A DNA stretch of 64,000 nucleotides from Liolophura sinensis (lineage: Eukaryota; Mollusca; Polyplacophora; Chitonida; Chitonidae): positions 377,001 to 441,000 of the forward strand of contig NC_088305.1 in the NCBI RefSeq assembly GCF_032854445.1. The letters run 5' to 3'. The notes beneath the pieces are model-generated. The model was not told where the DNA came from. It did no database searches and saw nothing but the letters and a program-made list of their open reading frames with translations. The position numbers and the translations under genes were made by a program. Shown here in pieces: positions 14,597 to 62,140 of the stretch. How positions within the stretch are numbered: the first letter of the stretch is position 1; the number at the start of each line of letters is the position of its first letter.

Positions 14597-19219
<4,623 letters not shown>

Positions 19220-23534: not shown

Positions 23535-28138
<4,604 letters not shown>

Positions 28139-32951: not shown

Positions 32952-34038
32952 TCATGAAATCACTAAATTTTTTATTTTAATGTTTTTGTGCTGTGCTGCC
33001 TTCTTAGTAAAGTGGGTTTTATTACTTGAAAAGGCAGGAATTTTTAAACTGACCCCCTGTGGTAATACATCAAACAATGGAAATCCCTTATCAGCTAAAA
33101 TTAGATCACCGGGCTTGAACTGATCAAGAAGTTTTGAATGTTCTACTATTGCCATATCACTAGTAGATCCTGGATATAAATCTGAGGCATAAACAATGGC
33201 TGCATTTGTCGCAACACTAGTAACAGATTTTACAGTATATCTGCTTTTGTAATTACTATAACAAACATTTTTCCATGTAATGGTGTGGGTATGTCCTAAG
33301 TAATTTCAGTAGCATCCATGGCAACGCGTGTAGGGGGAAAACATTCAGAACTCTTTGGCATTGACCCTTTACACTTTAATTGAGAGGGCATGCCCTGTGA
33401 AATAATGCCTTCATATAAACATTCATGTAAAGGCTGAAGTATAATATTAGATATGGTAGCATAACTTGTATTAAATAGTGTACAGAGATGAACATCCGTA
33501 AAATTATGCCGAAGTTTCATTAAAGAAATGATGAGCTGATCTCCTGTTGAAATGCATTTCACTGTCCTTCCTGCATAATAATTTAAGGGGCCCAAGTAAT
33601 TTAAAAGGGAGACCAATATCTCATATACATCCGGTTGAAGACTTGTGCAATGAAGAACCTGAAAGGATAACAAAATTTGACACCCTTGAAGTTATTATGT
33701 TTTAGAACACAATCATTATGGTACAACTTTTCAATTTCACACTTTGTTTTGTTGTATAACTGAAATATCACAGTCCTGAATTACCAGTATAATATTTCTG
33801 TGACAAAACTTTCTATTACTACCCCCCAAAAAATTTGATTTAAGTGGATTATGTGATGGGTTAAATTACGTGTTGTTATTTTCACACTTAACTTTATGTA
33901 TGATTGACCAAATGTAAATATTTAGCATGTTTTCCTCTGTTTTGAGTTGTTCATAGCTTATGGAATGTTTTCTCATTTTTATCTGTTTAAGTTCATCTTC
34001 AAGACAGGAAATCCGTTTCTTTCAATCAGACACCATAC
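32952..34038 (-). pseudogene. decayed DDE transposase (DDE_Tnp_4 type, possibly of a THAP-carrying element)
   Basis: On the minus strand an exon-like block starts at 33658 after a 'tcctttcag' acceptor. It reads GDQLIISLMKLRHNFTD then TSYATISNIILQPLHECLYEG, which is the helical region before the catalytic core, then VAMDATEI holding the first catalytic Asp. The frame then breaks (a stop follows ATEIT near 33296) and resumes in another frame with TWKNVCYSNYKS, VYASDLYPGSTSD and ILADKGF holding the second Asp. The C-terminal part with the Glu is cut after about 32952. An upstream block (about 34038-33860, LEDELKQIKMRKHSISYEQL) looks like the preceding coiled coil and also carries an in-frame stop. 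Such elements move by cut and paste. This copy cannot be active. Confidence 0.8.
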
Positions 34039-36190: not shown

Positions 36191-39100
36191 ATGGCGAGCA
36201 CGTCCAAAAAAGCTAAGATTTCGCCTGTGGACGGGCACCTAGACACCAGCGACAGTGACAGCGACAGTGATCTACCGGAGTGTCCCTACGGCGAGAGATG
36301 CTACAGGAAAAATCCACAGCATTTCAAAGAATTCTCACACCCAGCCAAACACGCCAAAGACGGGACTACAACAACGACGGGGGCAGCGGTGCTGCCGTCG
36401 AAAATCAACAGTACTGCCGACAATCTTCCACCATGTAAATATGGCGCTAACTGTTATCGGAAAAACTTAATACATTTCGCCGAGTATTCCCATCCTACAA
36501 ATACAGACAAGGCGACCACAGACAGTGGAAATGACACGGATGTGTATGACTCGGACGATGGCGATGAGGTAGGCCTAATGTGATATGTTTTTCGTGGGCG
36601 AGGGTTCAAATCTTGGCGTGGGAAATGGCGAGCTATTTTTTTTTTTCTTCTTTTTTTGTGGGTTTTTAGTATTCATTGATATAACAAGCATAGTATTATG
36701 TAACTGGACAGGACTTCTATCAGAACTAAAAATAATAAGACGACCACACAGTGTCCATGCCAAACAACTACTGATTAAACAGGGTTTCTTTATATACCCT
36801 GATGAGGGCATATCCGTTCCCAGGGGTGACCACACACAAAGGGTCTGTACTAAAATCCAAACACTTGTGAATTTACAGATAGCACAAAAATGACATCAAA
36901 GTGACCATTCCTTGACCAAACCATATCGGAGCTGGGTTGAGCCCAGGCTGCACCCAGTTATTTTGGCAAGAGTCACTACCACAGCTCACAAGCTTATCAG
37001 TGAAAAGAATAAGCAATAGTAAGTTAACACTGTAAACATTGTAACTTCGCAATCATCAGTACATCAGCCATAATCTTAATTATTACGCAAGGTATAATCA
37101 TTATTAGGAAAGGTGTAGTCAATGTCAGGTAGGGCATCGTCAGTGTCATGTTAAGGCGTAATGAATGTCAGGTAAGGCCTAATCATTGTCATGCAAGACG
37201 TAATCATTGTCACTTAAGGCGTAATCAATGTCTCGCAAAGCGTAATCGTCACATAGGTGTAATCATTGTAACGTAAAACATAATCATTAATCATTGTAAC
37301 GCAAGACATAATCGTTAATCATTTCAACGTAAGTTGTAGTCATTGTCATGAAAGGCGTAATCATTGTCATGAAAGGCGTAATCATTGTCACGAAAGGCGT
37401 AATCATTATCATGTTAGGTATAATCATTGTCACATAAGGTGAAATCATTATTATGTAGTGTGTAATCATTGATTGTCATCATAGAGTTGCATGAAAACAA
37501 AGCGTATATATGGCAGTCATCTAATTAAAAGTTGTGTGGAAATATAATAACAATGACAGACCAAGGTACAACAATTTTTTGCTTTAACCACTGTAATCTT
37601 ACAGTAGGACATTTAGCATTCTGATTGACCTGTCTTCGAATATACTTGCCAGTTCTGGGTATACATGCATTTGCCGTGTAACCACTAGTTTGCCATGTAA
37701 CCCACTTGTTTTGCTGTGTAACCCACTTGTTTGCTGTGTAACCCACTACCTCTGAGCCTTGTTTTGTACCTCATGAAATTTGATTCGGTACCGAAACAAG
37801 GTTATGTTCCAGCATTCTCGATACAGACAATAAACACCGACAAAACTCTGATGCAAGTGCATTTTACCTGGCTGCCCCATGCACATATGAATTATTACAA
37901 ACCTTGCTATTATCTTTGTTGTCTTTATCAGGGAATGAACGGGAAGGGTGTGTTAATAAAAGGGGATTCACAGCTTCTGGTGAAGAGTTATTCCAAAATG
38001 ACAGAAGATGAGCGAAAGGAACTGATCAAAAAAGCATTTGAGGCCAAAAAACAACTTCAGGAAGAACTGAGACAAACCAAGGAACAAATGGCAGAAAAGG
38101 AAAAGGAGCTGAAAAAATTACAGGATCAGGTAAGATTTTCCCAAAAGAAAGAGGAGAAAAAGAAAAGAGCTTTGCTCCACACTTTTCAACACTTTTCAAA
38201 CTCTGGTACATTATTTGGATGGTGTTTGTAAGGTTGTTCTAAAGGCATTACTTATACGTAATCCCTATATTGTGGTTTTCTGGTTTATGGATGGACCAAA
38301 TGCAGTGCAGGTTAGGCTATGTGTGCATTACAAAACATGTGATACAAAAAACATGTATTGGCTTACATGTAATAATAATTCATACAAAAGTGTAAATTAC
38401 CTAAAATCTAACCCATGATTAAGTTGTCCATTTCTCCTGATGCTGAGAATCCCATTGGTCTTTGTTATGTAAGTTACATGTAAGGTGATATACTAGCTAC
38501 TGGAAAAATGGAAGTTTACAAGAACAAAATATTTATGACATTTGCATGAATTTATGAACATTATTTCTTGGTTGAAATTTTGGGTCATTTGCAACAAATT
38601 GGTGAGTTGGTTTCTAAACACTGTACGATCTTGTAACAGTGGTTTTGATCAGCGTAGTTGTTGTAACAGTGGTTTTGATTCCTGCAGTAAATTTGATTGG
38701 TGAAGTTGTTATGACAGTGGTTTTGATTGGCTTAGGTGACAACAGGGCTCCTATTGGTGGATGGGGAGAAGGAAGCCCTAGAGGGTACGGTCACCAAGTA
38801 CTTTGTGCTCCACGCCGAGCGGGCATATAAAGAGGGGTCTGCGGATCAAATCCACTTTCGATTGGCAGAATCACAGTTCTACAGACTCCTCTCGGGACAG
38901 TATTGCCAACAGTGAGTTGTGGTTTTCTCTTGTCGTTTATTATTTTGTTAATAAATTCATTCCTGGACGGCTAAAACCCAGAGACAGACATAAATTAACC
39001 GGTTATTCAGTCTGTTAATTGATCTGAATTGTGTCTCTCTGGCTGTTCACTAATTATTTTAATAAATTAGTATTTGATTTTTGGGGGATTTAACAGTCTG

Positions 39101-42100
39101 GGGAAACACATAAGTTAGTTATCCAACAAGTTAATGAATCAGTTAACTATTGAAATTAATTAACCAGTCATTTAATTGATGCGTTTCTCTGAGGTTAGCA
39201 GGCCGCTATACTGATAGCTACAGAGGCTGATTTCACTGCTCCATTCAGTGGTCCATTCCCCCATTTATTTAGCTATAGTGTGGTTTTTGAAAAAGTGCTG
39301 TAATATTTGGTTTGCACTCCTTCCACTTGTTCTAAAAATATCTAAGTTACACCCCAGACCATCCTTAACGAGTGATATATAGTGTGTAACCGTACCCTGT
39401 CAGGAAAAAGAGGGCTGTTTTCTGGCTAATGAAAATGACAGGAATTTTACAGAAACTACCCTAAATGATCACAAATTTTGTCCATGACTAACTTGCCCAT
39501 TTTTCTTCCTGATACTGACAGTTTTATTGATTTTAGGTTTGCTTGGAACATAGGGTGATATTCTAGTGGAAAATTGTAACTTTATTTATTTATTTATTTA
39601 TTTGATTGGTGTTTTACGCCATACTCAAGAATCTTTCACTTATGCGACGGCAGCCAGCATTATGGTGGGAGGAAACTGGGCACTGCCCGGGGGAATCCCA
39701 AGACCATCAGCAGGTTGCGGACAGACCTTCCCAAGTACGGCCGAAGAGGAAGCCAGTATGAGCTGGACTTGAATAAAATTGTAACTTTCAGCATCAAAAA
39801 TAATATTTTGCGACATTTATTTGCCCTCTAAAAATGCACTTTCGTGGGCGAAATTTGAGGTCATTTTGGGTAGCAGTGGTATTAGGAGACAAATAAACAA
39901 AATTCTGTCAAAACCCACGAAACCTTTTGTGTAGGATCATTCTTAGAAGGTCGGTCTGGCTACACCAAATGATAGGACCCTTCTTAGAAGGTCGGTCTGG
40001 CTATGCCAAATGATAAGGCCCTTCTTAGAAGGTCGGTCTGGCTACGCCAAATGATAGGACCCTTCTTAGAAGGTCGATCTGGCTACGCCAAATGATAGGA
40101 CCCTCCTTGGAAGGTCGGTCTGGCTACGCCAAATGATAGGACCCTTCTTACAAGGTCGATCTGGCTACGCCAAATGATTAGCTGACAATGGAGATAAGGT
40201 TTCCTGGGTTAAACTCTGCAGCCTTGGTCACGAATAAACCTGCCAAACCTAAAATTCAGCTTAGGCTAGACATAGCCTAGACATGCCTATCTCTCACACC
40301 AGCCAATCAGAATTGATTCTTTATCCCTTTAAGAACGAGAAACCAAGAGAAAGAGGTCCCATTCAAGGGGAGATAATACCTGTAATTGCTCATAACTCCT
40401 GACCTGTACAACATTAGGGATATTGATTATAACTTTAGGGATTAACAAGAATGGCCCGAGATGTCAAAAAAGTTCGCTAAGCTTTAATTTGGCTATACTA
40501 TAAGTATTTTTGTTTTTCAAAATTTTCTCGATATCTTCCTGTATATACTTACATGTATATAGTTTTATGGTCGTTTATAGAAAGAATATTACAGTGAGAA
40601 ATGCAAAGGTAACATTTCATTATAAATTATGCCTGTGGTACTTTGTAGGTATCAGAGTCACAAAGTCGAATATGTGGTCAATCCAACATTGTTAAGAATT
40701 TTAGGTGAGTTTATTTTCTCCTGAGTTTATACCTTAAGTAGTTTGTAGTTTTCTTCAGTTTACCCCCTATTGGGTTTTATGTGGTACAACTCACGGCCTG
40801 CTCACTTTTGCATTGTTTCAATGTGATTGTATGCTAAATGTGACGACAGCACAGCATTTTCAGTAATTCTAGACCACTGATGTCTAATATATTGCAATTA
40901 ACATGACTAGAATGTTTTTTTTGCATAATTCTGCTTAAGCCATGGTGCTGGGGGCCCTGTAAATTTCTACTATTTATGTATTTACATGAACAGTTAGAAT
41001 AATACCCTGACCCTGACAAGAGACCACATTTCATGGGTTACGTGTGATCACTTTGCTAGCTACCCCACTTACATTGCTGCTGTGATTTTACACTCTATGC
41101 TGTACTCTTTAATTATATGTACTCATTTATTTTTAAACATAAATCATGTTTGGAATTTTATGCTGTTGTTTGAGCAGAAGGCTGTATAAAGTGGCTGTGT
41201 AGAATACAATTTTATGAAAAACTTGCGTTCCACTGATTTAGGCAAGTCAAAGTTCAATAGGCGAGACCGTGGGAAAATAACCTTAAAATAGCCTTACTAA
41301 GGCCGCTGTAAGCAATTCTTTTAAAGGAGACCCTCAACACCTTTATTTTCAGATTAAATGTTCCTTATTATACAATATTATGCTGTTTGCCTCTGAACTG
41401 CCTTTAAAAATCGTTTTAAAAATGCTAACCTATTCCATTAAAATCCCATTAAAAGTTGTCATTAAAAATACTAACCCATTCCATTTAAAATCCCCATTGT
41501 CTGTCTATCTACTTGGCTGCAGACCCATGGCCACGTGATGTCATGGATGAAGAGCTGCTGAAATAATGTATTAAAAATCCCTGCAAGACATTGGCAAATA
41601 GACTTTCCACTGTGTACTTTCATGGCGACTGAAAATAAATGGTTTTTTTTAAATGCTGAAATGCCCTGTGATGAATTGATCCTGTATTGTTTTTTGCCTG
41701 TGCTAAAAAGCCTAGTTACTCATGAAGAATTAATCTGTTTAAAACGTTCCGTGAAAAACGATCCTATTTTGTAAAGAACCATCTAGATCCATGCATGTTG
41801 CGTGATTTTAAGGATATCCAGTACGCAATATTCGCCTTATTTTTGGAAAAGGTCAGGAAAACGATAATTGTTTTATGAAGATGTAAGTTTTATTGCAAAA
41901 ATAGATGTAAAACAGAATATTTCAGGTTCAATCAGTCAACAAGCAATTAATGCTTCCCTCAATTGATTTCAGCGAAGCTAGAGAAGATTTGAAGAGGGAA
42001 AGAGGAGAGAAGCTGTCCTATCCCGTCTTGGCTTTCCATGGAACTAGTCAACAGGTCATCCCAAAGATCTGTGAAGGGGTTTCCTTGTACCAGGTACAAC

Positions 42101-45100
42101 CTCCGTGTCCAAGTGGTTAGTGGACTGGCAGATCTACACAATAACTTATGAGCCTCTCACCAGTGCGCATGCTGGGAGTTCAAATCCTGATCATGCTGGC
42201 TTGATTTCCAGTCATCTGTGAGCATATTTTCCAGCAGCCTGCAGATGGTTGTGGGTTTCCCCTGGGCTCTGTTTGGTTTCCTCCCACCATGCTGCTGGAT
42301 CTCCGTCCAGTGAAATAAGTGAAACATGCGTGGATATGTTGTTAAAACGGCCGTCAAATAAACAAAATATGTACCAGATATATGAGGTTACCTGGTTTTC
42401 AGATATATGAGGTTACCTGGTTATCAGATATATGAGGTTACCTGGTTTTCAGATATATGAGGTTACCTGGTTTTCAGATATATGAGGTTACCTGGTTTTC
42501 AGATATATGAGGTTACCTGGTTTTCAGATATATGAGGTTACCTGGTTTTCAGATATATGAGGTTTCCTGGTTTTTCAGATATATGAGGTACCTGGTTTTC
42601 AGATATATGAGGTTACCTGTTTTCAGATATATGAGGTTACCTGGTTTTCAGATATATGAGGTTACCTGGTCTTCAGATATATGAGGTTACCTGTCTTCAG
42701 ATATATGAGGTTACCTGGTTTTCAGATATATGAGGTTACCTGGTTTCAGATATATGAGGTTACCTGGTTTTCAGATATATGAGGTTTCCTGGTTTTCAGA
42801 TATATGAGGTTACCTGGTTTTCAGATATATGAGGTTACCTGGTTTTCAGATATGAGGTTTCTGGTTTTCAGATATATGAGGTTACCTGGTTTTCAGATAT
42901 ATGAGGTTACCTGGGTTTTCAGATATATGAGGTTACCTGGTTTTCAGATATATGAGGTTTCCTGGTTTTCAGATATATGAGGTTACCTGGTTTTCAGATA
43001 TATGAGGTTACCTGGTTTTCAGATATATGAGGTTACCTGGTTTTCAGATATATGAGGTTACCTGGTTTTCAGATATATGAGGTTTCCTGGTTTTCAGATA
43101 TATGAGGTTACCTGGTTTTCCAGATATATGAGGTTACCTGGTTTTCAGATATATGAGGTTACCTGGTTTTCAGATATATGAGGTTACCTGGTTTTCAGAT
43201 ATATGAGGTTACCTGGTTTTCAGATATATGAGGTTACCTGGTTTTCAGATATATGAGGTTACCTGGTTTTCAGATATATGAGGTTTCCTGGTTTTCAGAT
43301 ATATGAGGTTACCTGGTTTTCAGATATATGAGGTTACCTGGTTTTCAGATATATGAGGTTACCTGGTTTTCAGATATATGAGGTTTCCTGGTTTTCAGAT
43401 ATCCAAAATGCATGGATTGGTGAACAGGAATTTGTTTACTATATCATTATAAGTTTCTAATCTAACATGTTTACTATATCATTATAAGTTTCTAATCTGA
43501 CATGTTTACTATATCATTATAAGTTTCTAATCTAACATGTTTACTGTATCATTATAAGTTTCTAATCTAACATGTTTACTATATCATTATAAGTTTCTAA
43601 TCTAACATGTTTACTATATCATTATAAGTTTCTAATCTAACATGTTTACTATGTCATTATAAAGTTTCTAATCTAACATGTTTACTATGTCATTATAAGT
43701 TTCTAATCTAACATGTTTACTGTATCATTATAAGTTTCTAATCTAACATGTTTACTGTATCATTATAAGTTTCTAATCTAACATGTTTACTGTATCATTA
43801 TAAGTTTCTAATCTAACATGTTTACTATATCATTATAAGTTTCTAATCTAACATGTTTACTATATCATTATAAGTTTCTAATCTAACATGTTTACTGTAT
43901 CATTATAAGTTTTAATCTAACATGTTTACTGTATCATTATAAGTTTCTAATCTAACATGTTTACTATATCATTATAAGTTTCTAATCTAACAAGTTTACT
44001 ATATCATTATAAGTTTCTAATCTAACATGTTTACTATGTCATTATAAGTTTCTAATCTAACATGTTTACTATGTCATTATAAGTTTCTAATCTAACATGT
44101 TTACTTGTATCATTATAAGTTTCTAATCTAACATGTTTACTGTATCATTATAAGTTTCTAATCTAACATGTATGAATACAGATGGACATTCAGTCTTCAT
44201 CTTAGGAAGTAAAATTGGCTTTAAATAAAATGCTATCAGTAGTTTAATGATGAACTTGGCCAGTCCGCACAGGTTGTGAACTTTAAACATAACTGCCCTG
44301 ACTCCGATGATTCAAGTTGCATACCATGACTGGTTAATAAGGGCTGCTAAACTTGACTGCTTTAGCTGTGACTTTATTTATTTATTTGATTGGTGTTTAA
44401 TGCCATTCTCAAGAATATTTCACTAATATGACTTCAGCCAGTATTCAGAAAAGACCACCATAGAATAAAAATATTCAAATGCATTTTAACTAGGTTAAAC
44501 AAAAATTGTAAACAAATAAATCCAAATTTCGGTGGACAGTTTTTTAATGGTCTGTCATCTAATACATACTTCTTCTTAGAGTGGCCTTTGCCTTTAAGTG
44601 ATCTCTGAATGATTGTCAAGGTACACCAATCAGGTACCTGGTAAGGGGGCAGTGGTTTCCTTCGCTCTTTAATCCTGACAGTCACTGTTTACATGTAAGT
44701 AAACAACTTTTGAGAATGGCATTAACTGGTCAGGTCATCAACGATGACATTAAACACCAATCAAGTAATCAAGGATGACATTAAAACAGCAATCAAGTAA
44801 TCAACAATGACGTTTACACATAATCAATAATTAATTTCTGTTTCTGGTTTCAATTGACATTTGATTTATTCAAATACACGTTGTTTGTGTGTGCATGTTG
44901 TTTGACAGGTGAAAAGGGATTCAAACATAAGACTGACACAGGATGGTACGGCAAGGGTGTGTACTTCAGTGAATATCCGGGATACTCCATGGGCTATATC
45001 CAAGGTGCGACGAGTCTTTTGTTATGTCAGGTGCTTCCTGGAAAGGTAATTGTCCACATTTGTCCAAAACAAATATGCACATATAGCTGGAATGTTAACA

Positions 45101-48100
45101 TGTGGACTGAGGACAAAAACAGTTAACTCAAAAATGTAAAGGCCTCTTTCCCTAATTCACCCAGCTTAACACTCATTTTGCTATATATTGATAAGTTTGT
45201 GGACAGATGGATGGTCAGAGAGAAACACAAAGAGACGGACATTCTGACAGACAGACATTTATTCAGATGGACAATGGTCAATCAGAGGTACATTCATACA
45301 GATAGACACTCAAACAGATGGACAGTCAGACAGCTCAGTCCAAGACTCCCACACTCACTCACTCAGTAACGTGTGCATCTGTTGTCAGGTATATCAGTGC
45401 ACTCAGCTCATCCATGGGGCTTCTCTGACGGCAGGTTACGATTCCCACATCTCTCCCTGTAAAAAAGAGCTGGTTGTCTTCAACTCTCACCACATCCTGC
45501 CCTCGTATATCGTTCACTACGCCTCCGTCAAGACGGAATTTAAGTATTCCAAGGTATGAGTTTCAGGTTACTTCAAGTTTTTCATGGAAAAGAATTTGAT
45601 TCGTTTTGTCAAAGTGAATATATTTTCAAGAATTTATTTATGTTGATAATACGGCAATGATACAGATACATGTTTATGCATAAGAGGAAGAAGCATGGGA
45701 GGAAGGAATCGGTGGTCAGATACATGCATGTGGGAGGAAGAAATTCGTGATCAGATACATGCATGTGGGAGGAAGAAATCGGTGGTCAGATACATGCATG
45801 TGGGAGGAAGAAATCCGTGGTCAGATACATGCATGTGGGAGGAAGAAATCCGTGATCAGATACATGCATGTGGGAGGAAGGAATCGGTGGTCAGATACAT
45901 GCATGTGGGAGGAAGAAATTCGTGATCAGATACATGCATGTGGGAGGAAGAAATCGGTGGTCAGATACATGCATGTGGGAGGAAGAAATCCGTGGTCAGA
46001 TACATGCATATGGGAGGAAGAAATCCGTGGTCAGATACATGGATGTGGGAGGAAGAAATCCGTGGTCAGATACATGCATGTGGGAGGAAGAAATTCGTGG
46101 TCGGATACATGCATGTGGGAGGAAGAAATCCGTGGTCAGATACATGCATGTGGGAGGAAGAAATTCGTGGTCAGATACATGCATGCGGGAGGAAGAAATT
46201 TGTGGTCAGATACATGCATGTGGGAGGAAGAAATTCGTGATCAGATGCATGCATGTGGGAGGAAGAAATTCGTGATCAGATGCATGCATGTGGGAGGAAG
46301 AAATCCGTGGTCAGATACATGCATGTGGGAGGAAGAAATCCGTGGTCAGATACATGCATGTGGGAGGAAGAAATCCGTGGTCAGATTCATGCATGTGGGA
46401 GGAAGAAATCTGTGGTCAGAGCCCAGGAAAAACCCACGACCATCCGCAGGCTGTAGGCCCACCTTCCCACGTACAGCTGGAGAGGAAGCCAGCACGAGCT
46501 TAACTTGAACTCACAGCGACCGCATTGGTGGGAGGCTCCTGGGTCATTACACTGCACTAGCGCACTAACCAACTGAGCCACAGAGGCCCCCATGTATGTG
46601 AGAAGAAGAAATCCGTGGTCCTCTTTGACCATACATGGGAAAGTCTGAAAGCAGCCGGTGGATGGATGTGAGTTGCCCCTGGGCTCCACTCTGTTTTCTC
46701 CCACATTAAGGCTGGCTACTATATGTAAGGTATTCTTGAGTATTGCATAAAACCCCATGGGCAAAATGGGCAAAAAATTATTCATTACAAAATGTGTATA
46801 ACAGAAAATTCTCCAGAGAGTTAAATTCTGTATTTGCCAGGAAAAATGCATTTTAGTGCCAAATAAAGAACAGGAAATATTACATTTGACTACAAATTTC
46901 TATTTTTCCATTAAGATCAGTATACCTTTCAAACAAACTTCAAAACACCTGTATTAAGCAGGCAAAATGAGAATTGTTCTCATGGACAAAGTTTTACGTC
47001 AAATACTAGGCGGTATTGGTAATGAATAAAATGTGGGACCTCCATGGCTGAGGGGGTTAGCACGACCTTTCCAAGTCCAGTTTTCTCCCACCATAATGCT
47101 GACCTCCATGGCTGAGGGGGTTAGCACGACCTTTCCACTCCCAGTTTCCTCCCACCATAATGCTGACCTCCATAGTTAAATATTCTAGAGTACGGAGTAT
47201 GGTAAAACACCAATCAAATAAATATTGGTAAATAAGTAAATAAATAAAGTGTATGGGCAGCTTTTTACAGCTTCCTGTTAGATGTTTTTGAAAAACTTGC
47301 TTTTGTGAATGTATTTTTTTATATGTACTTTGACTTTTTGCAATTATGCGTAATTGTACATATGCAAATTGATTGGCTGCAAATGTTGAATTTAATTTAA
47401 AGGTCGTGATATTTGTGTGTTTGCATTCAATACTCTTTTCAGACTGTAACAGGTAAATTGATGATATCTGATGAAGAATTAAAGAAGAAATATGTAAAAG
47501 CTTGTAAAGCAGCAGTGAAAAAAGGAGCTGGGTAAGTTCGTCCTGTAAAATGCGGTTGCTTTGTGCATTTGCTACACTTGTTTGCATGGCCTGTGACTTG
47601 ACAGGTATCTTACCTATGATTCTGCGCCCCGTCCATCCACTTCAGCAGTATAAATCCCTTGTCCATCCACCTCAGCAATATAAATCCCTTGCCCATCCAC
47701 TTCAGCAATATAAATCCCTTGTCCATCCACCTCAGCAATATAAATCCCTTGTCCATCCACCTCAGCAATAAAAGTCCCTTGTCCATCCACCTCAGCAATA
47801 TAAATCCCTTGTCCATCCACCTCAGCAATATAAATCCCTTGTCCATCCACCAGATCAATATAAATCCCTTGTCCATCCACCTCAGCAATATAAATCCCTT
47901 GTCCATCCACCTCAGCAATGTAAATCCCTTGTCCATCCACCTCAGCAATATAAATCCCTTGTCAATCCACCTCAGCAATGTAAATCCCTTGTTCATCCAC
48001 CTCAGCAATAAAAATCCCTTGTCCATCCACCTCAGCAATATAAATCCCTTGTCCATCCACCTCAGCAATATAAATCCCTTGTTCATCCACCTCAGCAATA

Positions 48101-51100
48101 AAAATCCCTTGTCCATCCACCTCAGCAATATAAATCCCTTGTCCATCCACCTCAGCAATAAAAATCCCTTGTCCATCCACCTCAGCAATATAAATCCCTT
48201 GTCCATCCACCTCAGCAATATAAATCCCTTGTCCATCCACCAGATCAATAAAAATCCCTTGTCCATCCACCTCAGCAATATAAATCCCTTGTCCATCCAC
48301 CTCAGCAATATAAATCCCTTGTCCATCCACCTCAGCAATATAAATCCCTTGTCCATCCACCTCAGCAATATAAATCCCTTGTTCATCCACCTCAGCAATA
48401 TAAATCCCTTGTCCATCCACCTCAGCAATATAAATCCCTTGTCCATCCACCTCAGCAATAAAAATCCCTTGTCCATCCACCTCAGCAATATAAATCCCTT
48501 GTCCATCCACCTCAGCAATATACATCCCGTGTCCATCCACCTCAGCAATATAAATCCCTTGTCCATCCACCTCAGCAATAAAAATCTCTTGTCCATCCAC
48601 CTCAGCAATATAAATCCCTTGTCCATCCACCTCAGCAATATAAATCCCTTGTCCATCCACCTCAGCAATATAAATCCCTTGTCCATCCACCTCAGCAATA
48701 AAAATCCCTTGTCTATCCACCTCAGCAATATAAATCCCTTGTCCATCCACCTCAGCAATATAAATCCCTTGTCCATCCACCTCAGCAATAAAAATCCCTT
48801 GTCCATCCACCTCAGCAATATAAATCCCTTGTCCATCCACCTCAGCAATATAAATCCCTTGTCCATCCACCTCAGCAATAAAAGTCCCTTGTCCATCCAC
48901 CAGATCAATATAAATCCTTTGTCCGATGCATTAAAAAAAGACATGCTCCTTTTGCTCTGCATTAAAGTATTCAGTAAGGGATCTTGTGGTCTTCATGTCA
49001 CCTTTAATACAGAGTATTTATAATTTTGGACTTTTGAATCCAAAAGTGTGATCTGGCAAAACCTGCATTTGAACTCATGACATTCTGATTAATTGTCTAC
49101 ATGTTATTGTCTCTTAGCACAGCTTTAAAGGCAGAAAAATGACAAAAATTTCCATTTCCATGTACACGTCACCAACTATTGCCTGTGGGATATCATCCAA
49201 ATAGACTGCAAATACACAGTGTGAACTTTGCAGCGTATAGACAACTATGATCATTATAATTGGTTTATTACAGATCTTCTTGTTATAACTCTTACATCCA
49301 TGCCTATTATTGGTTTATTACAGCTCTTCTTGTTATAACTCTTACATCCATGCCTATTATTGGTTTATTACAGCTCTTCTTGTTATAACTCTTACATCCA
49401 TGCCTATTATTGGTTTATTACAGCTCTTCTTGTTATAACTCTTACATCCATGCCTATTATTGGTTTATTGCAGCTCTTCTTGTTATAACTCTTACATCCA
49501 TGCCTATTCCTAAAGCACATTATTTTTTTGTCTTTAGTTTATTCAGCAACACCGAGTTTCAATTTTCTGGTCAGCTGATAGCCAGTCATAAAGAGCTTGG
49601 GGACTTAATTGTAAAACATGGAGGAAAAATAGGTCAGTTTATGAACTGTTGTCTGTTATTAGTCACCATTGTTCCTTTTCTTTCTGTAAGTTTATTACGT
49701 TTGTGTATTTATTTATTTATTTATCTAATTAACATTTAGATGATTGTTGTCCAGTGCCAAAAACTAAAAAGATTGTTGTCACTTATATGGTGGTGATCAG
49801 TTCTATGGGTGAAGGAAACCTGAATGCCTAGGATCAAATTACCACCTTACAACCTTTGGCATTTAAGTTACTGATGATGTAGACCACCTTGGTGGCCTAA
49901 TGGTTAGAGCGTCCCGCATGAAGTCAGGAGACCCGGGATCAAATCCAGACCGGGTTATAACAAGGGTTAAAAGTGGTAGTTCTTGGTAGTTTGTGCCTTG
50001 CTTGGCACCCAACATTGGGAGGTTAGAGGAAGGAAACAGGACTGCTTGGCCTGGTGTCAGTATAACATGACTGTGTGGGGTGTCATGTCTGGTGTCTTCA
50101 GTGGTGGTAGCACTTTGGCGGCATGAGCTCGCCCTGCCACAAGAGCACACAGCATATGAACACTCGCCTGATGACTCCTTGTGATCGTATGAATATAAAT
50201 TGTAAAGTACGACATAAAACTCCAAGTATACATGTACATATATACTGACAAACTGGACCACATATCCCGCGCTGGTTTTAGGCGGTTTCTAATGGCAGAA
50301 CTCATGATTTATTTCAACCATTTGTTGTCTAATCATAAATAATCATGTAATGTTTGTTGGCTCAGCTGAGCTACTGCGTGGATTTCGTTGTCAATAGGCC
50401 AAGATCCAGGAGCTCGGAAAGAGGAGTTTTTTGCAACCGGTGAAAAAGCACACTTCTCTCATTGTTGGCATTTCTTTATTTTTGTTTCTCTGTTCATCCA
50501 ATTCAAGAAAGGGTGTCGGTTAAGCATTTTGATTATTGAACTCTTCCTGAATATTTTCACTGATGACATTTTTGTGTACTGTCTTTAAATATGTATGTAA
50601 TCATTAGTTCACGCAGTTCAGCCTTCACCTTTCTTCTCTTTTTTGGGGCGCAAAACAAGAAATAGGGCATTGCATTGCTGAAAAACCAAAGAAATGATTT
50701 TTTTGTGAATTGTTACCTTTTTTATTTGTTTTGCAGGCTCTTCTAAAATGTTTGACAGGTTAATCAGCACCCCAGAGGAGGTTGAAAAAGGAACTGCAAA
50801 AGTCAAGAAGGCTCAATCCCTGGGGGTAAGTCCAATACAGCAGGGTTGTAAAAAGTAAAGCTGTTGTGTAGGAACAAAGGCGGTTTACCCTAATTCTTCA
50901 ACCTTTCTAACCCCCTCTGCAACCAATATTTTGAAACATTCTGAGATAACTAATGTGCATAGGTTTATGAAGCTTGCATCTTTAATGACAAAAAAAAATT
51001 TCCATCATTTTTATAACAATTTCTTGCATAAATTCTTGTGGGAAACAAAGTGCTTTAAAAGCTAAAAAGGTTGAAGATTTACAGTATGTTAGCAATAGCG

Positions 51101-52509
51101 AGCGCTAATATTAAGATGTGGTATTATAGAGAACCTTAAAACAGTAAAGAGGAGGTGTTTGGAAGGTGCATCTCACAGAATAAGTCTGGGCTAAGTGCAT
51201 TGTCTCTGAGTTCAAGTCCAGCTAATGCTGGCAACCTTCTAAGGTCGTACATGTAACAAGGTCTGCCAGCAACGTACGTATGGTCTGGTTTTCCCCTGGC
51301 TTAGCCCAGTTCCTCCAACTGTAATGCTGGCCGCAGTTGTACGAAGTGAAATATTATTGAATAGCCTGTAAAACACCTGAGTCTTATGAATAAAACCCCA
51401 TGCTCTCATGGAAAGCTAATTAATGTAAATAACTTGGAAAACAGTCACTCAGTGGCCCAAAACGTGAGCCTTTCAAAACTGCGTCAGTGTGTCTCTCCAG
51501 TGCATTGCCTAGCTGGTGAGGCTGACACAGGTATGAAGGCAGTGTCTACTGTCACTGATCCACTACTGGTGATGCCCTACTCCCCAGAGAGTTTACAAAT
51601 AATGACAACATCCTTCACAAGGCATACATGTAGTCACCCAAGAAAGTAGGCCTATAGAGAAGGTACATTACATGTAAGCAAAAAGGATATTTGTGAATAC
51701 ACAGTGTGAATACACGGTGTGAATATACAGTGCACAAACAAAAGTTCCAGAGATTTATTGTCCTGTTTTTAAGAAGAAATCTTGACAGATTTTGGTATAG
51801 GGAATAGATTTATGTTGAGCTTAAAATGATCTGAACTGGAAATTCCTTTAGTGCGTTTAAAGTGGCCCAGTGATTAGAGTGATAGTGCAGCACATTGACT
51901 CTGAATCCTATCATCATTACGGTCACCAATGTGGTCGCTGTGATTTCAAGTCCAGCTCATGCTACCTTCCTCTCCGGTCGTACGTGGGAAGGTCTTTCAG
52001 CAACCTGCAGTTGGTCATGGGTTTCCCCCGGGCTCTGCCCGGTTTCCACCCACCATAATGCTGGCTGCCGTTGTATAAGTGAAATATTCTTGAGTACGGC
52101 GTAAAACACCAACCAAATATAGAAATAAAATAAATAAATATCAATACGGTCATGGTGAGTTCAAGTCCGGCTCATGCTGGTTTCTTTCCCGCTTGTATGT
52201 GGCAAGATCAGTGGTTTCCTTCCACCGTACTAATGCTGGGCATTGTATAAATGAAATATTCTAGAGTACACTGTAAAACACAATTCAAATAAATAAATAA
52301 ATAAATAAATAAATAAAGTGTAATGGTTTTTGAGTATCACTGGTTATTTCCCATTGTGAGAAATATTGCCAGGACTAGATTAATCAGATGTTTCACAATT
52401 TGTTTCCTTTCTGCTTCAGCCGGATACAATTCTCTCGCAGGCTTACATCTTTGACATGATCCTGACGAAAGGAAAAGCCATCAAGGACATTGAATCCTAC
52501 CATTTGTGA
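36191..52509 (+). CDS. ADP-ribosyltransferase with PBZ fingers, PARP catalytic domain and C-terminal BRCT
   Basis: Eleven exons give 521 aa: 36191-36568, 37932-38129, 38736-38911, 40649-40704, 41978-42070, 44909-45045, 45389-45553, 47443-47531, 49538-49632, 50737-50825, 52420-52509. Start chosen at the ATG in good context (gtcATGG). Two PBZ fingers (C-x5-C-x6-H-x5-H) span residues 31-50 (CPYGERCYRKNPQHFKEFSH) and 82-101. They sit among acidic Asp/Ser runs and bind poly(ADP-ribose). A charged coiled coil covers about 150-192. The PARP domain (about 235-400) has H290 (AFHGT), Y319 (GKGVYFSEY) and E373 (KELVVF), the H-Y-E triad of polymerising PARPs. A BRCT domain follows (about 437-510: FSGQLIASHKELGDLIVKHG, then LISTPEEVEKG). 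Probably nuclear, in DNA repair. Exons 1-3 and 6-11 are solid. The exon 4/5 and 5/6 joints are less certain: acceptor 41977 and donor 42071 are the pair that keeps phase. Confidence 0.85.
37080..37470 (+). repeat. about 21-bp degenerate minisatellite in PARP-gene intron 1
   Basis: Roughly 18 loosely conserved copies of 'gtaatcattgtcatgaaagg' with many indels, the most regular copies lying between 37320 and 37420. Confidence 0.8.
37650..37745 (+). repeat. about 21-bp tandem repeat x 4
   Basis: Repeats of 'gtgtaacccacttgtttgct' in intron 1, ending about 190 bp before exon 2. Confidence 0.8.
38620..38740 (+). repeat. about 30-bp tandem repeat x 4, running into exon 3
   Basis: Copies of 'aacagtggttttgattggyg' with 'tagttgtt' spacers. 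The last copy supplies the pyrimidine and AG context of the exon 3 acceptor at 38735. Confidence 0.7.
39582..39772 (-). mobile_element. SINE-A, inverted, head missing
   Basis: (TTTA)n, 'tgattggtgttttacgccat', 'cgacggcagccagcattatg' and 'gaccttcccaagtacggccg' are present. It ends at 'gagctggacttgaa', without the tRNA-like head. In intron 3 of the PARP gene. Confidence 0.85.
39938..40180 (+). repeat. 41-bp minisatellite, about 6 copies
   Basis: Unit contains 'ggacccttcttagaaggtcg' and 'gtctggctacgccaaatgat', with few substitutions between copies. In intron 3. Confidence 0.92.
42096..42369 (+). mobile_element. SINE-A, full length, with target-site duplication
   Basis: Head 'acctccgtgtccaagtggtt', body 'gtgcgcatgctgggagttca', core with 'tgaaataagtgaaacatgcg' and tail 'caaataaacaaaat' are present. 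It is flanked by 'tgtaccag' at 42086-42093 and 42370-42377. It is inserted immediately 3' of exon 5 and immediately 5' of a 25-bp array. Confidence 0.85.
42378..43402 (+). repeat. 25-bp minisatellite, about 41 copies
   Basis: Unit 'agatatatgaggttacctgg' plus 'ttttc'. Most variants are 1-bp gains or losses in the T run and GTTTCC for GTTACC. In intron 5 of the PARP gene. Confidence 0.97.
43430..44172 (+). repeat. 35-bp minisatellite, about 21 copies
   Basis: Unit contains 'gtttctaatctaacatgttt' and 'actatatcattataa', variants mainly ATA/GTA/ATG before TCATT. It starts only about 30 bp after the previous array ends. Confidence 0.97.
44375..44452 (-). mobile_element. SINE-A tail fragment, inverted
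   Basis: (TTTA)n followed by 'gattggtgtttaatgccatt' and 'ctcaagaatatttcactaat'. Confidence 0.75.
44736..44828 (+). repeat. short tandem repeat, about 38 bp x 2.5
   Basis: 'caatcaagtaatcaaggatg' and 'acattaaa' words recur just before exon 6 of the PARP gene. Confidence 0.6.
45690..46418 (+). repeat. 35-bp minisatellite, about 21 copies, fused to a SINE
   Basis: Unit contains 'tgggaggaagaaatccgtgg' and 'tcagatacatgcatg'. The last unit continues without a break into the inverted SINE-A body at 46418. Because 35 is not a multiple of three, the long open frames here cycle through three readings and are artefacts. In intron 7. Confidence 0.95.
46418..46592 (-). mobile_element. SINE-A 5' two thirds, inverted
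   Basis: 'aacccacgaccatccgcagg', 'gaactcacagcgaccgcatt' and inverted head 'taaccaactgagccacagag' are present. Its 3' part is replaced by the 35-bp array. Confidence 0.88.
46640..46762 (+). mobile_element. SINE-A 3' half fragment
   Basis: 'gcagccggtggatggatgtg', 'tgggctccactctgttttct' and 'gtattcttgagtattgcata' match the family body and tail. Confidence 0.65.
47036..47232 (+). mobile_element. rearranged SINE-A with internal 62-bp duplication
   Basis: The block 'gacctccatggctgaggggg' to 'cccaccataatgct' occurs twice in tandem (from about 47038 and 47101). It is followed by the tail 'ggtaaaacaccaatcaaata'. Confidence 0.75.
47630..48925 (+). repeat. 30-bp minisatellite, about 43 copies
   Basis: Unit contains 'ctcagcaatataaatccctt' and 'gtccatccac'. 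Variants include AAAA for TATA, AGATCA for TCAGCA and TTC for TCC. The unit length is a multiple of three and lacks stops in several frames on both strands, producing overlapping 450-codon open frames that are not genes. In intron 8 of the PARP gene, starting about 100 bp after exon 8. Confidence 0.97.
49255..49508 (+). repeat. 50-bp tandem repeat x 5, each unit with a splice-acceptor-like end
   Basis: Unit contains 'ctcttcttgttataactctt' and 'attggtttattacag'. The last copy ends about 30 bp before exon 9 of the PARP gene. Each unit holds a 'ttattacag' that looks like a 3' splice site. Confidence 0.92.
49883..50240 (+). mobile_element. SINE-B, full length
   Basis: The tRNA-like head 'ggtggcctaatggttagagc' continues with 'gtcccgcatgaagtcaggag' and 'acccgggatcaaatcc' (B-box-like). 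A body of about 260 bp follows, then the tail 'gtaaagtacgacataaaact'. It is a different family from SINE-A. It is embedded in intron 9 and does not fold as a functional tRNA because the head runs straight into the body. Confidence 0.75.
51190..51378 (+). mobile_element. SINE-A copy, head missing
   Basis: 'gagttcaagtccagctaatg', 'ctccaactgtaatgctggcc' and 'gtacgaagtgaaatattatt' match the family. In intron 10. Confidence 0.75.
51862..52138 (+). mobile_element. SINE-A, full length
   Basis: Diverged head 'gtggcccagtgattagagtg' is followed by a well-preserved body ('ctccggtcgtacgtgggaag', 'gggctctgcccggtttccac') and the tail 'cggcgtaaaacaccaaccaa'. In intron 10. Confidence 0.88.
52143..52318 (+). 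mobile_element. SINE-A copy, 5'-truncated, adjacent to another
   Basis: 'acggtcatggtgagttcaag' to a long (AATA)n tail, directly following the previous SINE in the same orientation. Confidence 0.8.
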
Positions 52510-54345
52510 CACATCCCCCACACACCACAGCCCTACAATTTGTGACACATCCCACACACACCACAGCCCTACCATTTGTGACACGTCCCACACACACCAC
52601 AGCCCTACCATTTGTGACACGTCCTACACACCCCACAGTTCTACCATTTGTGACACATCCCACACACACCACAGCTCTACCATTTGTGACACATCCTGCA
52701 CACCCCACAGCCCTACCATTTGTGACACATCCTACACACCCCACAGTTCTACCATTTGTGACACATCCCACACACACCACAGCCCTACCATTTGTGACAC
52801 ATCCTACACACCCCACAGTTCTACCATTTGTGACACATCCCACACACACCACAGCCCTACCATTTGTGACACATCCTACACACCCCACAGTTCTACCACT
52901 TGTGACACATCCCACACACACCACAGTTCTACCATTTGTGACACATCCCACACACACCACAGTTCTACCGCTTGTGACACATCCTACACACACCACAGCC
53001 CTACCATTTGTGACACATCCCCCACACACCACAGTTCTACCATTTGTGACACATCCCACACACACCACAGCCCTACCATTTGTGACACATCCCACACACA
53101 CCACAGCCCTACCATTTGTGACACATCCTACACACCCCACAGTTCTACCACTTGTGACACATCCCACACACACCACAGTTCTACCATTTGTGACACATCC
53201 CACACACACCACAGTTCTACCGCTTGTGACACATCCCACACACACCACAGCCCTACCATTTGTGACACATCCCACACACACCACAGTTCTACCATTTGTG
53301 ACACATCCCACACACACCACAGCCCTACCATTTGTGACACATCCCCCACACACCACAGTTCTACCATTTGTGACACATCCCACACACACCACAGCCCTAC
53401 CATTTGTGACACATCCTACACACCCCACAGTTCTACCACTTGTGACACATCCCCCACACACCACAGTTCTACCATTTGTGACACTTCCTACACACACCAC
53501 AATTCTACCATTTGTGACACATCCTACACACACCACAATTCTACCATTTGTGACACATCCCACACACACCACAGCCCTACCATTTGTGACACATCCTACA
53601 CACCCCACAGTTCTACCATTTGTGACACATCCTACACACACCACAGTTCTACCATTTGTGACACATCCCCCACACACCACAGTTCTACCATTTGTGACAC
53701 ATCCTACACACCCCACAATTCTACCATTTGTGACACATCCCACACACACCACAATTCTACCATTTGTGACACATCCCCCACACACCACAGTTCTACCATT
53801 TGTGACACATCCCACACACACCACAGTTCTACCATTTGTGACACATCCTACACACTTCACAATTCTACCATTTGTGACACATCCTACACACACCACAGCC
53901 CTACCATTTGTGACACATCCCACACACATCACCGTTCTACCATTTGTGACACATCCTACACACCCCACAGTTCTACCACTTGTGACACATCCCACACACA
54001 CCACAGTTCTACCACTTGTGACACATCCCCCACACTTCACAGTTCTACCACTTGTGACACATCCCACACACACCACAGTTCTACCATTTGTGACACATCC
54101 CACACACACCACAGTTCTACCATTTGTGACACATCCCACACACACCACAGTTCTACCACTTGTGACACATCCCACACACACCACAGTTCTACCATTTGTG
54201 ACACATCCCACACACACCACAGTTCTACCATTTGTGACACATCCTACACACTTCACAATTCTACCATTTGTGACACTTCCTACACACACTACAGCCCTAC
54301 CACATGTGACACATCCCACACACACCACAGCCCTACCAGAACCTG
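52497..54345 (+). repeat. 36-bp minisatellite, about 51 copies, starting in the last codons of the PARP gene
   Basis: Unit contains 'ctaccatttgtgacacatcc' and 'cacacacaccacag' plus CC or TT. The first unit begins in the final codons (Tyr-His-Leu-stop) of the PARP gene, so every unit repeats the same TGA in the gene's frame. Variants at the Y positions (CACAC/TACAC, ATT/ACT) are shared by groups of units, a sign of higher-order duplication. Open frames above 600 codons on both strands come from the repeat. Confidence 0.97.
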
Positions 54346-55526: not shown

Positions 55527-55885
55527 TACATGTACTCTGTTCAAGATGAGTATTTCAGGTTGCATATCTCACCTGTATGCTTATCTATGTATTAGTTACA
55601 TAGTACAGGTGTTCATTTTTGTTTAGTGGGTAGTGGGACAGTAGTGGGAAAATCTCACATTCCCTGTCAGATGTAGTCAGGTGTTGTAGTTACTAAGTTA
55701 AGCGTGTTCCTGGTTAGTGCTATTTTCGTCAGATATCTTTACCAGACTACAGTTGTACTACTGTTACTGTACTTGGCTATACATTATACATTAAACCTGT
55801 GCTTGATGAACTGTGTTTCATTGGTCTTGCCACTCACTTTATCCCCCCGATTGGGTTGTTTAGCATCAGTATATACAACTATGTG

Positions 55886-60411: not shown

Positions 60412-60615
60412 CTATTTACGTACTCGATTCAGACCCCATGACAAGTAATCTGGCCTGGTCGCAGCCTGGTATTCATCCACCAGCTGTTGCAGAACCTCCC
60501 GGGAATCATCAAACTCGTCCAAATTCTCCTTAAAAATGTCCTCTTTCTTGAACTGGTCAAGGAAGGCCTGCCTGTTGATCAATTTGTCAAACTGACGTAA
60601 GGTCCGCTCAAACAG
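60412..60615 (-). CDS. TUBG1: gamma-tubulin, last coding exon (partial gene)
   Basis: On the minus strand an exon opens at 60615 after a 'ctctttcccag' acceptor, in phase 0, and ends at TAG 60414-60412: 67 residues. It reads [20 protein letters not shown], then [20 protein letters not shown], then [20 protein letters not shown]. This is the H11-H12 C-terminal region of gamma-tubulin, the microtubule-nucleating tubulin of the gamma-tubulin ring complex at centrosomes. The ATRPDY-SWG ending is diagnostic and excludes alpha, beta, delta and epsilon. The final residues here are GLNRVRK, a basic end unlike the short GTQEQ-like acidic end I recall in vertebrates. No other gamma-tubulin exon was recognised between here and the right edge, so the preceding intron is at least about 3.4 kb or that exon was missed. 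Confidence 0.93.
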
Positions 60616-62140
60616 CTGGGAAAGAGAAGAAACAACTCAACTTGAGAACAAATTATCAAGGGGATTCTATTATACCTCAAAACAAATTTTGGTCCAGTCA
60701 AACATGCATGTCATTGGCTTATATCCTGAACAAACTTCGCAACAGCCATAGTTCATGTTTTGGCGCAAGGCAGGATATTCCTATCACACCAAAATACCGA
60801 TGACGGTCGCACCATAGAGACTAAAATGTAGGAATAGGTACATCACAAGATTTCACTGACAACAGATATCAGCTTCGTCAGGTGTAGTCCTCGTGCAGAG
60901 GCATGTAGCCTGCCATCTACGACTTTCTTGGAAGAGCTCAACAATCTCTAATGGATGACTAATGAAGATAATTCAGACAGACCAAAGGAAACCACTGTAA
61001 CATTGAATGTTAGCATTGTAACTGTCCTATCATGTTGGTTTTGTAAAGTTGCTGCCAGTGAATGGATGAAGGAAGCCGAAAGGAGAATACAGGCAAAGCT
61101 TTACCAAAGTTGTTAATGTAGATGGTGTTTTAAGCGTGTAAACTATTTATGGCCCATTTGTGGCTGATTGGTGATGCTAGCTATTGCCAAAGTCATTCTT
61201 ATTTCATTGAAAATGGAAGACTGGGTACGGTGGTCAACAACACGCCTCTTTTAAGTTGTGTGAACGTTAATGAAAGCACACTTCAACCAATGAAATTTGT
61301 ACTTTATGATAGAACAAAGCACCACGCCAATGTTTTAACCTTGTAGGTTGATCTGATACATGTATATATATGGTGTATTATTATCTTTGAATCTTCAGAA
61401 GACTTACATCATTACTGGTTACTGATGACATGAACAATTTTGGTAAGAAATGGGAAGATGTTGGAGGGTCAGCGATCCTTGCACAGGCCCAATTAGTGAA
61501 ATATAAACCCTCCGTAGACCAAAGCTTTCAGCTACTGAAGTCAGCTGTAGCTGATTGAGCTGACATTTGTAATAGATTTGCTACATTGTTGCGACATTTG
61601 ACAGTAGCATGCCACAATAAAATCTTTACTTCAGTTCCAAAACTCCAGTGTAGATGTGATCAAATTCACCAGCAAACTGTTCAACATCGTCCTGATGTCC
61701 GCTGCTTCCTGTGTTTCATCAATCGCTCCTTAATAGCTAACAACATTTTTACAAAAATGTCTTCATGCACCCCTTTTCTTAGCTCCATGTTCATTTCATT
61801 GTAATCTACTCATTAGTTTTGGATATGTTTCAGCCATTGCACAGGTGCCTGCCCTCAATACATCCTAGCACTAATATATACGTCGTTGCTGTTAAAAAAC
61901 AAGGCAAGTAACAAAGACCTCGGCAACGGAGCAATCAACAGATTCCACCTACTACACAGCCAAATCATCTCAAATTTTTGTCCACTGTTGTTTCAAACTG
62001 TGCCGAACATGAAATAAATTTGATTTCATAACTTTTTGATATTTTATGGACGAAAACATCACCTACTTTCTGATAATGGTACACAGTCTAACAGTCTCGC
62101 ATTTTCGGTGACGTGGCCTGCTTTGGCATGAGAACGCCTT
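60616..62140. other. probable gamma-tubulin intron, no gene seen
   Basis: Unique-looking AT-rich DNA without recognisable coding or repeat content. Confidence 0.4.

What the first reader, a model, noticed from the sequence alone, without database searches (positions are those of the whole stretch)
36191..52509. PBZ-PBZ-coiled coil-PARP-BRCT: an unusual ADP-ribosylation protein
Seen: two C-x5-C-x6-H-x5-H fingers, a PARP fold with H290, Y319 and E373, and a BRCT-like end in one spliced frame. Known: PBZ fingers bind poly(ADP-ribose) (APLF, CHFR), the H-Y-E triad marks polymerising PARPs, and in PARP1 the BRCT precedes the catalytic domain. Inference: a self-contained reader-writer for DNA damage with the BRCT placed last. 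I know no vertebrate PARP with this order, but cannot search invertebrate sets.
Basis: partly seen in the sequence, partly recalled or inferred. Interest (0 to 1): 0.8.

Follow-up and report, generated by a model that had tools for sequence, protein, structure and literature searches.

The report
Animal PARP fused to PAR-binding fingers
An invertebrate-type gene appears to join two zinc fingers that recognise poly(ADP-ribose) to an enzyme domain that adds ADP-ribose, with a PARP1-like BRCT domain at the end; finger-plus-enzyme fusions were already reported in other organisms, so this is an unusual arrangement of known parts rather than a new kind of system.

Summary
The observation largely holds. 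Eleven in-frame GT-AG exons on the + strand (36191-52509) give 540 aa: two canonical PBZ fingers (Pfam E 4e-28; APLF tandem PBZ, PDB E 3e-16), a charged helix, a PARP core with H304-Y338-E392 (Pfam 1.9e-7), and a C-terminal BRCT. The BRCT is weak by Pfam (0.0055 in the whole protein), but looks PARP1-type: a PARP1-BRCT profile ranks exons 10 and 9 first and second of 1,222 window ORFs, and 0 of 20,000 shuffles reach its score. Two corrections. H-Y-E does not mark a polymerase: PARP3 and PARP4 carry it and are mono-transferases, and this core lies closest to PARP13/12 among solved structures. WGR, PARP1-type zinc fingers and the regulatory domain were not found. PBZ+PARP is not new: Perina et al. 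2014 report it in Entamoeba, Capsaspora and lancelet. I saw no description of the BRCT-last order, but no animal genome collection could be searched. Best reading: a recruited "second-wave" ADP-ribosyltransferase that docks on existing PAR. Weakest links: the exon 7-8 join to the BRCT (no transcripts) and the exon 5-6 junction.

The parts
36191..36568 (+). Exon 1: start codon and two PBZ (zf-CCHH) fingers at about 36275-36349 and 36428-36499; Asp/Ser-rich flanks
37932..38129 (+). Exon 2: about 45-residue Lys/Glu/Gln-rich helix, possible coiled coil
   Evidence: 64 of 2,000 shuffles reach its heptad score
38736..38911 (+). Exon 3: region just before the PARP core, probably the start of the ART fold (my reading); contains no Met
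40649..40704 (+). Exon 4: short exon, VEYVVNPTLL segment upstream of the catalytic His; contains no Met
41936..42093 (+). Exon 5: PARP core with catalytic His304 (codon 42037-42039); the 3' end of this exon is uncertain
44917..45045 (+). Exon 6: PARP core GWYGKGVYF with Tyr338 (codon 44962-44964); the 5' end is uncertain (weak acceptor; another AG 8 nt upstream is out of phase)
45389..45553 (+). Exon 7: end of PARP core with Glu392 (codon 45467-45469)
47443..47531 (+). Exon 8: lysine-rich linker between PARP and BRCT
49538..49632 (+). Exon 9: BRCT first part (KHGGKI)
50737..50825 (+). Exon 10: BRCT second part (ISTPEEVEK; PARP1 chains have ISTKKEVEK)
52420..52509 (+). Exon 11: BRCT end and stop codon; the last three residues and the stop lie in the first unit of a 36-bp tandem array

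Best explanation
A single gene for a recruited ADP-ribosyltransferase. Two tandem APLF-type PBZ fingers dock the protein on poly(ADP-ribose) already laid down by the genome's own PARP1/2-like enzymes at damaged chromatin; a charged helix may dimerise it; the PARP core (H-Y-E, closest to PARP13/12) then transfers ADP-ribose (mono or short chains) to nearby proteins; the C-terminal PARP1-type BRCT supplies a further contact with intact DNA, PAR or a partner protein. Shown by sequence: the domains, their order on one strand, the conserved PAR-binding and catalytic residues. Inferred: one transcript, nuclear DNA-damage role, dimerisation, product and targets.
For: PBZ exon matches the APLF tandem PBZ at 3e-16 and keeps the Y, Y and R that contact ADP-ribose in APLF (CPY/CYR and CKY/CYR; residues named in PMC6264785 passages). 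PARP core and triad. PARP1-type BRCT; the PARP1 BRCT has been implicated in protein, intact-DNA or PAR contacts (PMC10450202 passages). No PARP_reg, WGR or PARP zinc finger among the 13 Pfam families listed at E <= 1 for the 540 aa (HMMER's filters drop most matches above about 0.1). In the same genome PBZ exons lie upstream of HPF1 exons and around a BRCT exon upstream of a DNA-ligase exon, same strand in each case (splicing not shown), and PARP1-, PARP2- and PARP3-like loci are present (names from my reading of motifs), so a PAR signal to read probably exists. Ten joins keep phase; exons 3 and 4 lack Met, so the full PARP region needs an upstream coding exon.
Against: No transcript, no orthologue and no structure model. 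The BRCT is below Pfam's cut-off in the whole protein, and its best PDB match by E-value is a designed protein (0.0014), ahead of three PARP1 entries (0.031-0.1). Exon 7 read through adds one Val and then stops, just past the PARP core, so a form without BRCT is easy to imagine. The first AATAAA/ATTAAA motif after the stop codon is at 55790, 3.3 kb on. The PARP core resembles PARP12/13, members of a clade described mainly in RNA and antiviral contexts. In the PARP12 alignment and the alignment, gaps fall beside Glu392, so its placement at the catalytic position rests on the PARP13 alignment and the following LVVF. Exon 5-6 junction unsettled.
Confidence: 0.5

Rival explanations
1. Gene-model fusion: exons 1-7 (or even exon 1 alone) form one gene ending just after the exon donor, and exons 8-11 (BRCT) belong to another transcript.
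For: Reading through the exon 7 donor gives Val-stop right after the PARP core; reading through the exon 1 donor gives Val-Gly-Leu-Met-stop. About 1.9 kb with a 35-bp minisatellite separates exons 7 and 8, with AATAAA/ATTAAA motifs at 46862, 47025, 47217 and 47239.
Against: By a crude score the exon 7 donor is in the top 3.8% of window GTs and the exon 8 acceptor in the top 6.1% of AGs; the join is phase 0 to 0; exons 8-11 alone would be a bare 120-aa BRCT piece. The BRCT is of the type found in a PARP.
Confidence: 0.22
2. Feed-forward polymerase: the enzyme makes poly(ADP-ribose) itself and its own PBZ fingers bind the product, spreading the signal. (Overlaps with the best explanation except for the product.)
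For: H-Y-E triad present; PBZ binds PAR (PMC5087659 passages).
Against: H-Y-E also occurs in the mono-transferases PARP3 and PARP4; nearest solved cores are PARP13/12, and no PARP1, PARP2 or tankyrase chain is among the 12 PDB sequences at E <= 1.
Confidence: 0.25
3. A cytoplasmic stress or antiviral PARP of clade-3 type that uses PBZ to find PAR away from DNA.
For: Core closest to PARP13/PARP12, which act on RNA and in stress granules (PMC4245714).
Against: PBZ proteins and BRCT domains are tied mainly to the DNA-damage response.
Confidence: 0.15
4. A decaying gene: introns full of minisatellites and a SINE-like element next to exon 5 have broken splicing.
For: Weak exon 5 donor (16%) and exon 6 acceptor (87%) beside a SINE-like insert (SINE by my reading); large tandem arrays in and at the end of the gene.
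Against: No stop or frameshift inside any of the 11 exons as modelled; both PBZ, the H-Y-E triad and the BRCT GG and ISTxxEVEK are intact.
Confidence: 0.08

Closest known systems
PBZ-PARP proteins of Entamoeba histolytica, Capsaspora owczarzaki and lancelet (Perina et al. 2014, PMC4245714)
   Same: PBZ and a PARP catalytic domain in one protein
   Different: The text I read gives no domain order and mentions no BRCT in those proteins; figures and supplements were not available to me, so they could be orthologues with the same order
APLF (tandem PBZ, PDB 2kqb/2kuo)
   Same: Two PBZ fingers in tandem, same zinc and ADP-ribose contact residues
   Different: From general knowledge APLF is not an enzyme and has an FHA domain, with PBZ towards the C-terminus; here PBZ is N-terminal and fused to PARP
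PARP1 (clade 1)
   Same: H-Y-E catalytic triad and a PARP1-type BRCT
   Different: No PARP zinc fingers, WGR or regulatory domain found; BRCT lies after, not before, the catalytic domain
PARP12/PARP13 (clade 3)
   Same: Closest catalytic cores by sequence among solved structures (E 1.2e-7 to 2.2e-5)
   Different: They have Ile or Val in place of the catalytic Glu and CCCH fingers/WWE instead of PBZ; no BRCT
PARP4 (clade 5)
   Same: PARP domain not at the C-terminus; has a BRCT; H-Y-E with mono activity
   Different: BRCT is N-terminal to the PARP domain, VIT/vWA follow; WGR and HD are present

Membership tests
PBZ (zf-CCHH) proteins | C-x(5)-C-x(6)-H-x(5)-H finger over Pfam PF10283 cut-off | tested here: met
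   Two stretches, 97.5 bits against a cut-off of 22.7; each over cut-off in the genome scan
PBZ (zf-CCHH) proteins | ADP-ribose contact residues Y, Y, R as in APLF | tested here: met
   CPY...CYR and CKY...CYR, compared with residues named in PMC6264785
PARP/ARTD catalytic family | PF00644 over cut-off | tested here: met
   31.2 bits against 26.7 in the whole protein; 36.6, 38.5 and 46 bits for fragments with three alternative exon 5-6 joins
PARP/ARTD catalytic family | H-Y-E triad at aligned positions | tested here: met
   H304, Y338; E392 aligned with the Val of PARP13 (Val at that site: PMC2964712 passage). Gaps beside E392 in the PARP12 alignment and leave some doubt
Clade 1 DNA-repair PARPs | WGR and PARP regulatory (HD) domains | tested here: not met
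   Neither is among the 13 Pfam families listed at E <= 1 for the 540 aa
BRCT domain | PF00533 over cut-off | tested here: inconclusive
   17.4 bits whole protein; 21.3 for exons 8-11, equal to the cut-off; 20.2 for exons 9-11; reversed-sequence control gave an unrelated 18.9-bit hit
PARP1-type BRCT | Better match to a PARP1-BRCT profile than shuffles or other ORFs | tested here: met
   20.3 bits; 0 of 20,000 shuffles as high (best 19.6), reversed -0.6; exons 10 and 9 rank 1 and 2 of 1,222 ORFs, exon 9 narrowly. Profile made from three sequences only
Poly-ADP-ribosylating PARPs | Chain elongation activity | not testable with these tools
   Needs an enzyme assay; H-Y-E alone does not decide
Same-architecture orthologues in animals | PBZ-PBZ-PARP-BRCT order in other species | not testable with these tools
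   No animal genome collection; viral, phage and prokaryote collections gave no relatives

The most novel reading that the evidence does not exclude
An unrecognised animal PARP lineage that kept the catalytic Glu, carries tandem PBZ in front and a PARP1-type BRCT behind, and works as a 'read poly, write more ADP-ribose' amplifier downstream of PARP1; it was lost or never present in vertebrates.
Probability: 0.3. Interest if true: 0.6.

Novelty: new variant of a known kind. Interest (0 to 1): 0.42.

Why it matters
Vertebrates keep PBZ readers of poly(ADP-ribose) (APLF, CHFR, SNM1A) in proteins separate from PARPs. A natural PBZ-PARP fusion in an animal would let one test directly whether tethering a writer to the PAR signal changes the spread of ADP-ribosylation at breaks. 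In the same genome PBZ exons also sit beside HPF1 and DNA-ligase exons, which fits the idea that this lineage uses PBZ as an address tag for several repair enzymes.

Tried and rejected
Relatives outside the genome: PARP region in viral contigs (10 pattern stretches, 0 relatives; 0), PBZ exon in viral contigs (0), phage records by tblastn (no match), prokaryote genomes (88 stretches, 0 relatives), a GWYGxGxYFxE codon pattern in prokaryote and viral contigs (0 and 0). A viral or bacterial origin therefore has no support, within the reach of short-pattern searches.

Copies of the whole protein in the own genome: the search was sent 15 times and never answered. Whether paralogues exist is open.

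Tests of selection were not possible without a relative. A tree of PARP catalytic domains was not built; the clade statement rests on PDB sequence ranking and on a profile built only from PARP12/13-like cores, with no competing profile of other clades.

Score favours the shorter join, the CAG-gt donor favours mine, spacing favours neither. Left open. A further small exon in the 2.8-kb intron is not excluded.

Exon 2 also gave sub-cut-off Pfam hits (RRF 7.3e-4, DUF4600 1.5e-3), typical of charged helices; I gave them no weight. An ORF at 60415-60636 (-) that I took for a gamma-tubulin end by recall had no Pfam match, nor had one putative HPF1 exon (L028:3036-3335).

Papers: 10 searches answered; one search was rejected for a character and not sent again, so no search joined PBZ and Entamoeba. 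In some searches only 15 of 24 and 15 of 1,202 papers were listed. Seen: PMC4245714 outline, passages and all three parts of section 3.1; PMC2964712, PMC8529158, PMC8634249, PMC6264785, PMC5087659, PMC9149570, PMC10450202: passages only. The statement that I saw no description of the BRCT-last order rests on these alone.

Full report
What is there. The window lies at 377001-441000 of a 32.8-Mb contig of an unnamed 609-Mb genome in 632 contigs. On the + strand, 11 exons bounded by GT-AG splice sites run from an ATG at 36191 to a TGA at 52507-52509 and keep the reading frame across all ten joins, giving 540 residues. By a crude consensus score, 8 of 10 donors fall in the top 3.8% of all GTs of the window, the other two (exons 1 and 5) at 16%; of 10 acceptors, those of exons 9, 10 and 11 are in the top 0.4% of AGs, exons 2 and 8 in the top 2.7% and 6.1%, exons 3, 4, 5 and 7 at 12-20%, and exon 6 at 87%. 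The exon 5-6 join is therefore not settled; a SINE-like element follows exon 5 directly (my reading).

PBZ fingers. Exon 1 holds two fingers of the exact form C-x5-C-x6-H-x5-H. In a six-frame search of the genome they are the two best of 7 matches. The exon matches the tandem PBZ of APLF at E 3e-16, and both fingers keep the two Tyr and the Arg that contact ADP-ribose in APLF, as named in PMC6264785. This part is beyond reasonable doubt.

PARP core. The spliced protein passes Pfam's PARP cut-off (31.2 against 26.7 bits). Of 12 PDB sequences at E <= 1 the nearest are PARP13 (1.2e-7) and PARP12 (2e-5), then PARP4, PARP10 and PARP3; PARP1, PARP2 and tankyrases are not among them. A profile of three own-genome PARP12-like cores plus PARP12 and PARP13 ranks exons 6, 5 and 7 as the best three of 1,222 window ORFs of 30 or more residues (E 0.00096, 0.0013, 0.32; the next is 1.8). 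The triad is H304-Y338-E392; the Glu lines up with the Val of PARP13, while gaps fall beside it in the PARP12 alignment and. Unlike PARP12 and PARP13, the Glu is kept. H-Y-E does not by itself mean polymerase: PMC9149570 lists PARP3 and PARP4 as H-Y-E mono-transferases. No WGR, regulatory domain or PARP-type zinc finger is among the 13 Pfam families listed at E <= 1.

BRCT. Pfam alone is marginal, and a reversed copy gave an unrelated hit of nearly the same score, so I tested it another way. Of 8 PDB sequences matched by exons 8-11, three are PARP1 BRCT entries (E 0.031-0.1); the other five, among them the best by E-value (0.0014), are designed proteins by their names. A profile of two PARP1 BRCT chains from the PDB and the own genome's PARP1-like BRCT gives 20.3 bits; 0 of 20,000 shuffles reach it, though one comes to 19.6, and the reversed copy scores -0.6. 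In the window, exon 10 ranks first (E 0.022) and exon 9 second (E 1.4, just above an unrelated ORF at 1.6) of 1,222. I take the BRCT as real and of PARP1 type.

One gene or several. In favour of one gene: order, strand, phase, and the absence of Met in exons 3 and 4, which ties the PARP region to an upstream coding exon. Against: the exon 7 frame would stop after one further residue past the donor, and the exon 1 frame after four, so shorter proteins are possible; AATAAA/ATTAAA motifs lie between exons 7 and 8, while after the stop codon the first is 3.3 kb away; no transcripts were available. The BRCT link is the claim most in need of a test.

Surroundings in the genome. Five further PBZ matches lie elsewhere. 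One lies upstream of HPF1 exons on the same strand (HPF1 E 4.2e-19 and 7.4e-31; splicing not shown); PBZ on HPF1 is known from insects and molluscs (PMC8634249, passage). Two flank a BRCT exon (E 3.9e-7) upstream of a DNA-ligase exon (25.4 bits, just under the cut-off of 26.2), an arrangement resembling ligase K with PBZ (PMC6264785). The PARP scan gave 22 matches at E <= 0.01, among which I recognise PARP1-, PARP2- and PARP3-like loci by motif (my reading).

What is known. Perina et al. 2014 state that PBZ with a PARP catalytic domain was found in Entamoeba, Capsaspora and lancelet. Citarelli et al. 2010 describe BRCT domains N-terminal to the PARP domain in subclade 1E and in clade 5. None of the passages I saw mentions a BRCT after the PARP domain; but figures, supplements and animal sequence databases were out of reach. 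I therefore rate it a new variant of a known kind.

How it may work. Most likely the fingers bring the enzyme to PAR made by other PARPs, and the core adds ADP-ribose to neighbours, a second wave of writing. Dimerisation by exon 2 is weakly supported (64 of 2,000 shuffles reach its heptad score). The BRCT may hold intact DNA, PAR or a partner, as implicated for PARP1. Substrates, chain length and cell compartment are unknown.

Noticed in passing
39932-40178, 42375-43402, 43433-44171, 45696-46420, 47631-48924, 49255-49508, 52497-54338: Seven tandem arrays scoring over 400 in Tandem Repeats Finder (41, 25, 35, 35, 30, 50 and 36 bp units) lie in the gene's introns or at its 3' end; the 36-bp array starts 10 bases before the stop codon, so the last three residues and the stop come from its first unit.
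   Followed up: partly
49255-49508: The 50-bp unit carries an acceptor-like tttattacag (tttattgcag in the last copy), repeated about five times just upstream of the exon 9 acceptor.
   Followed up: no
L028-L029 (own genome C8, minus strand): A PBZ exon upstream of HPF1 exons on the same strand.
   Followed up: partly
L030-L031 (own genome C9:20.118-20.137 Mb): PBZ, BRCT and PBZ exons upstream of an ATP-dependent DNA ligase exon, resembling ligase K.
   Followed up: partly
18053-19216 (+) and 23538-24746 (-): Two tubulin genes, alpha-type by my reading, in opposite orientation (Pfam run on the first only).
   Followed up: no
32955-33691 (-): Fragments of a DDE_Tnp_4 (harbinger-like by recall) transposase upstream of the gene (Pfam run on 32955-33305 only).
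   Followed up: no
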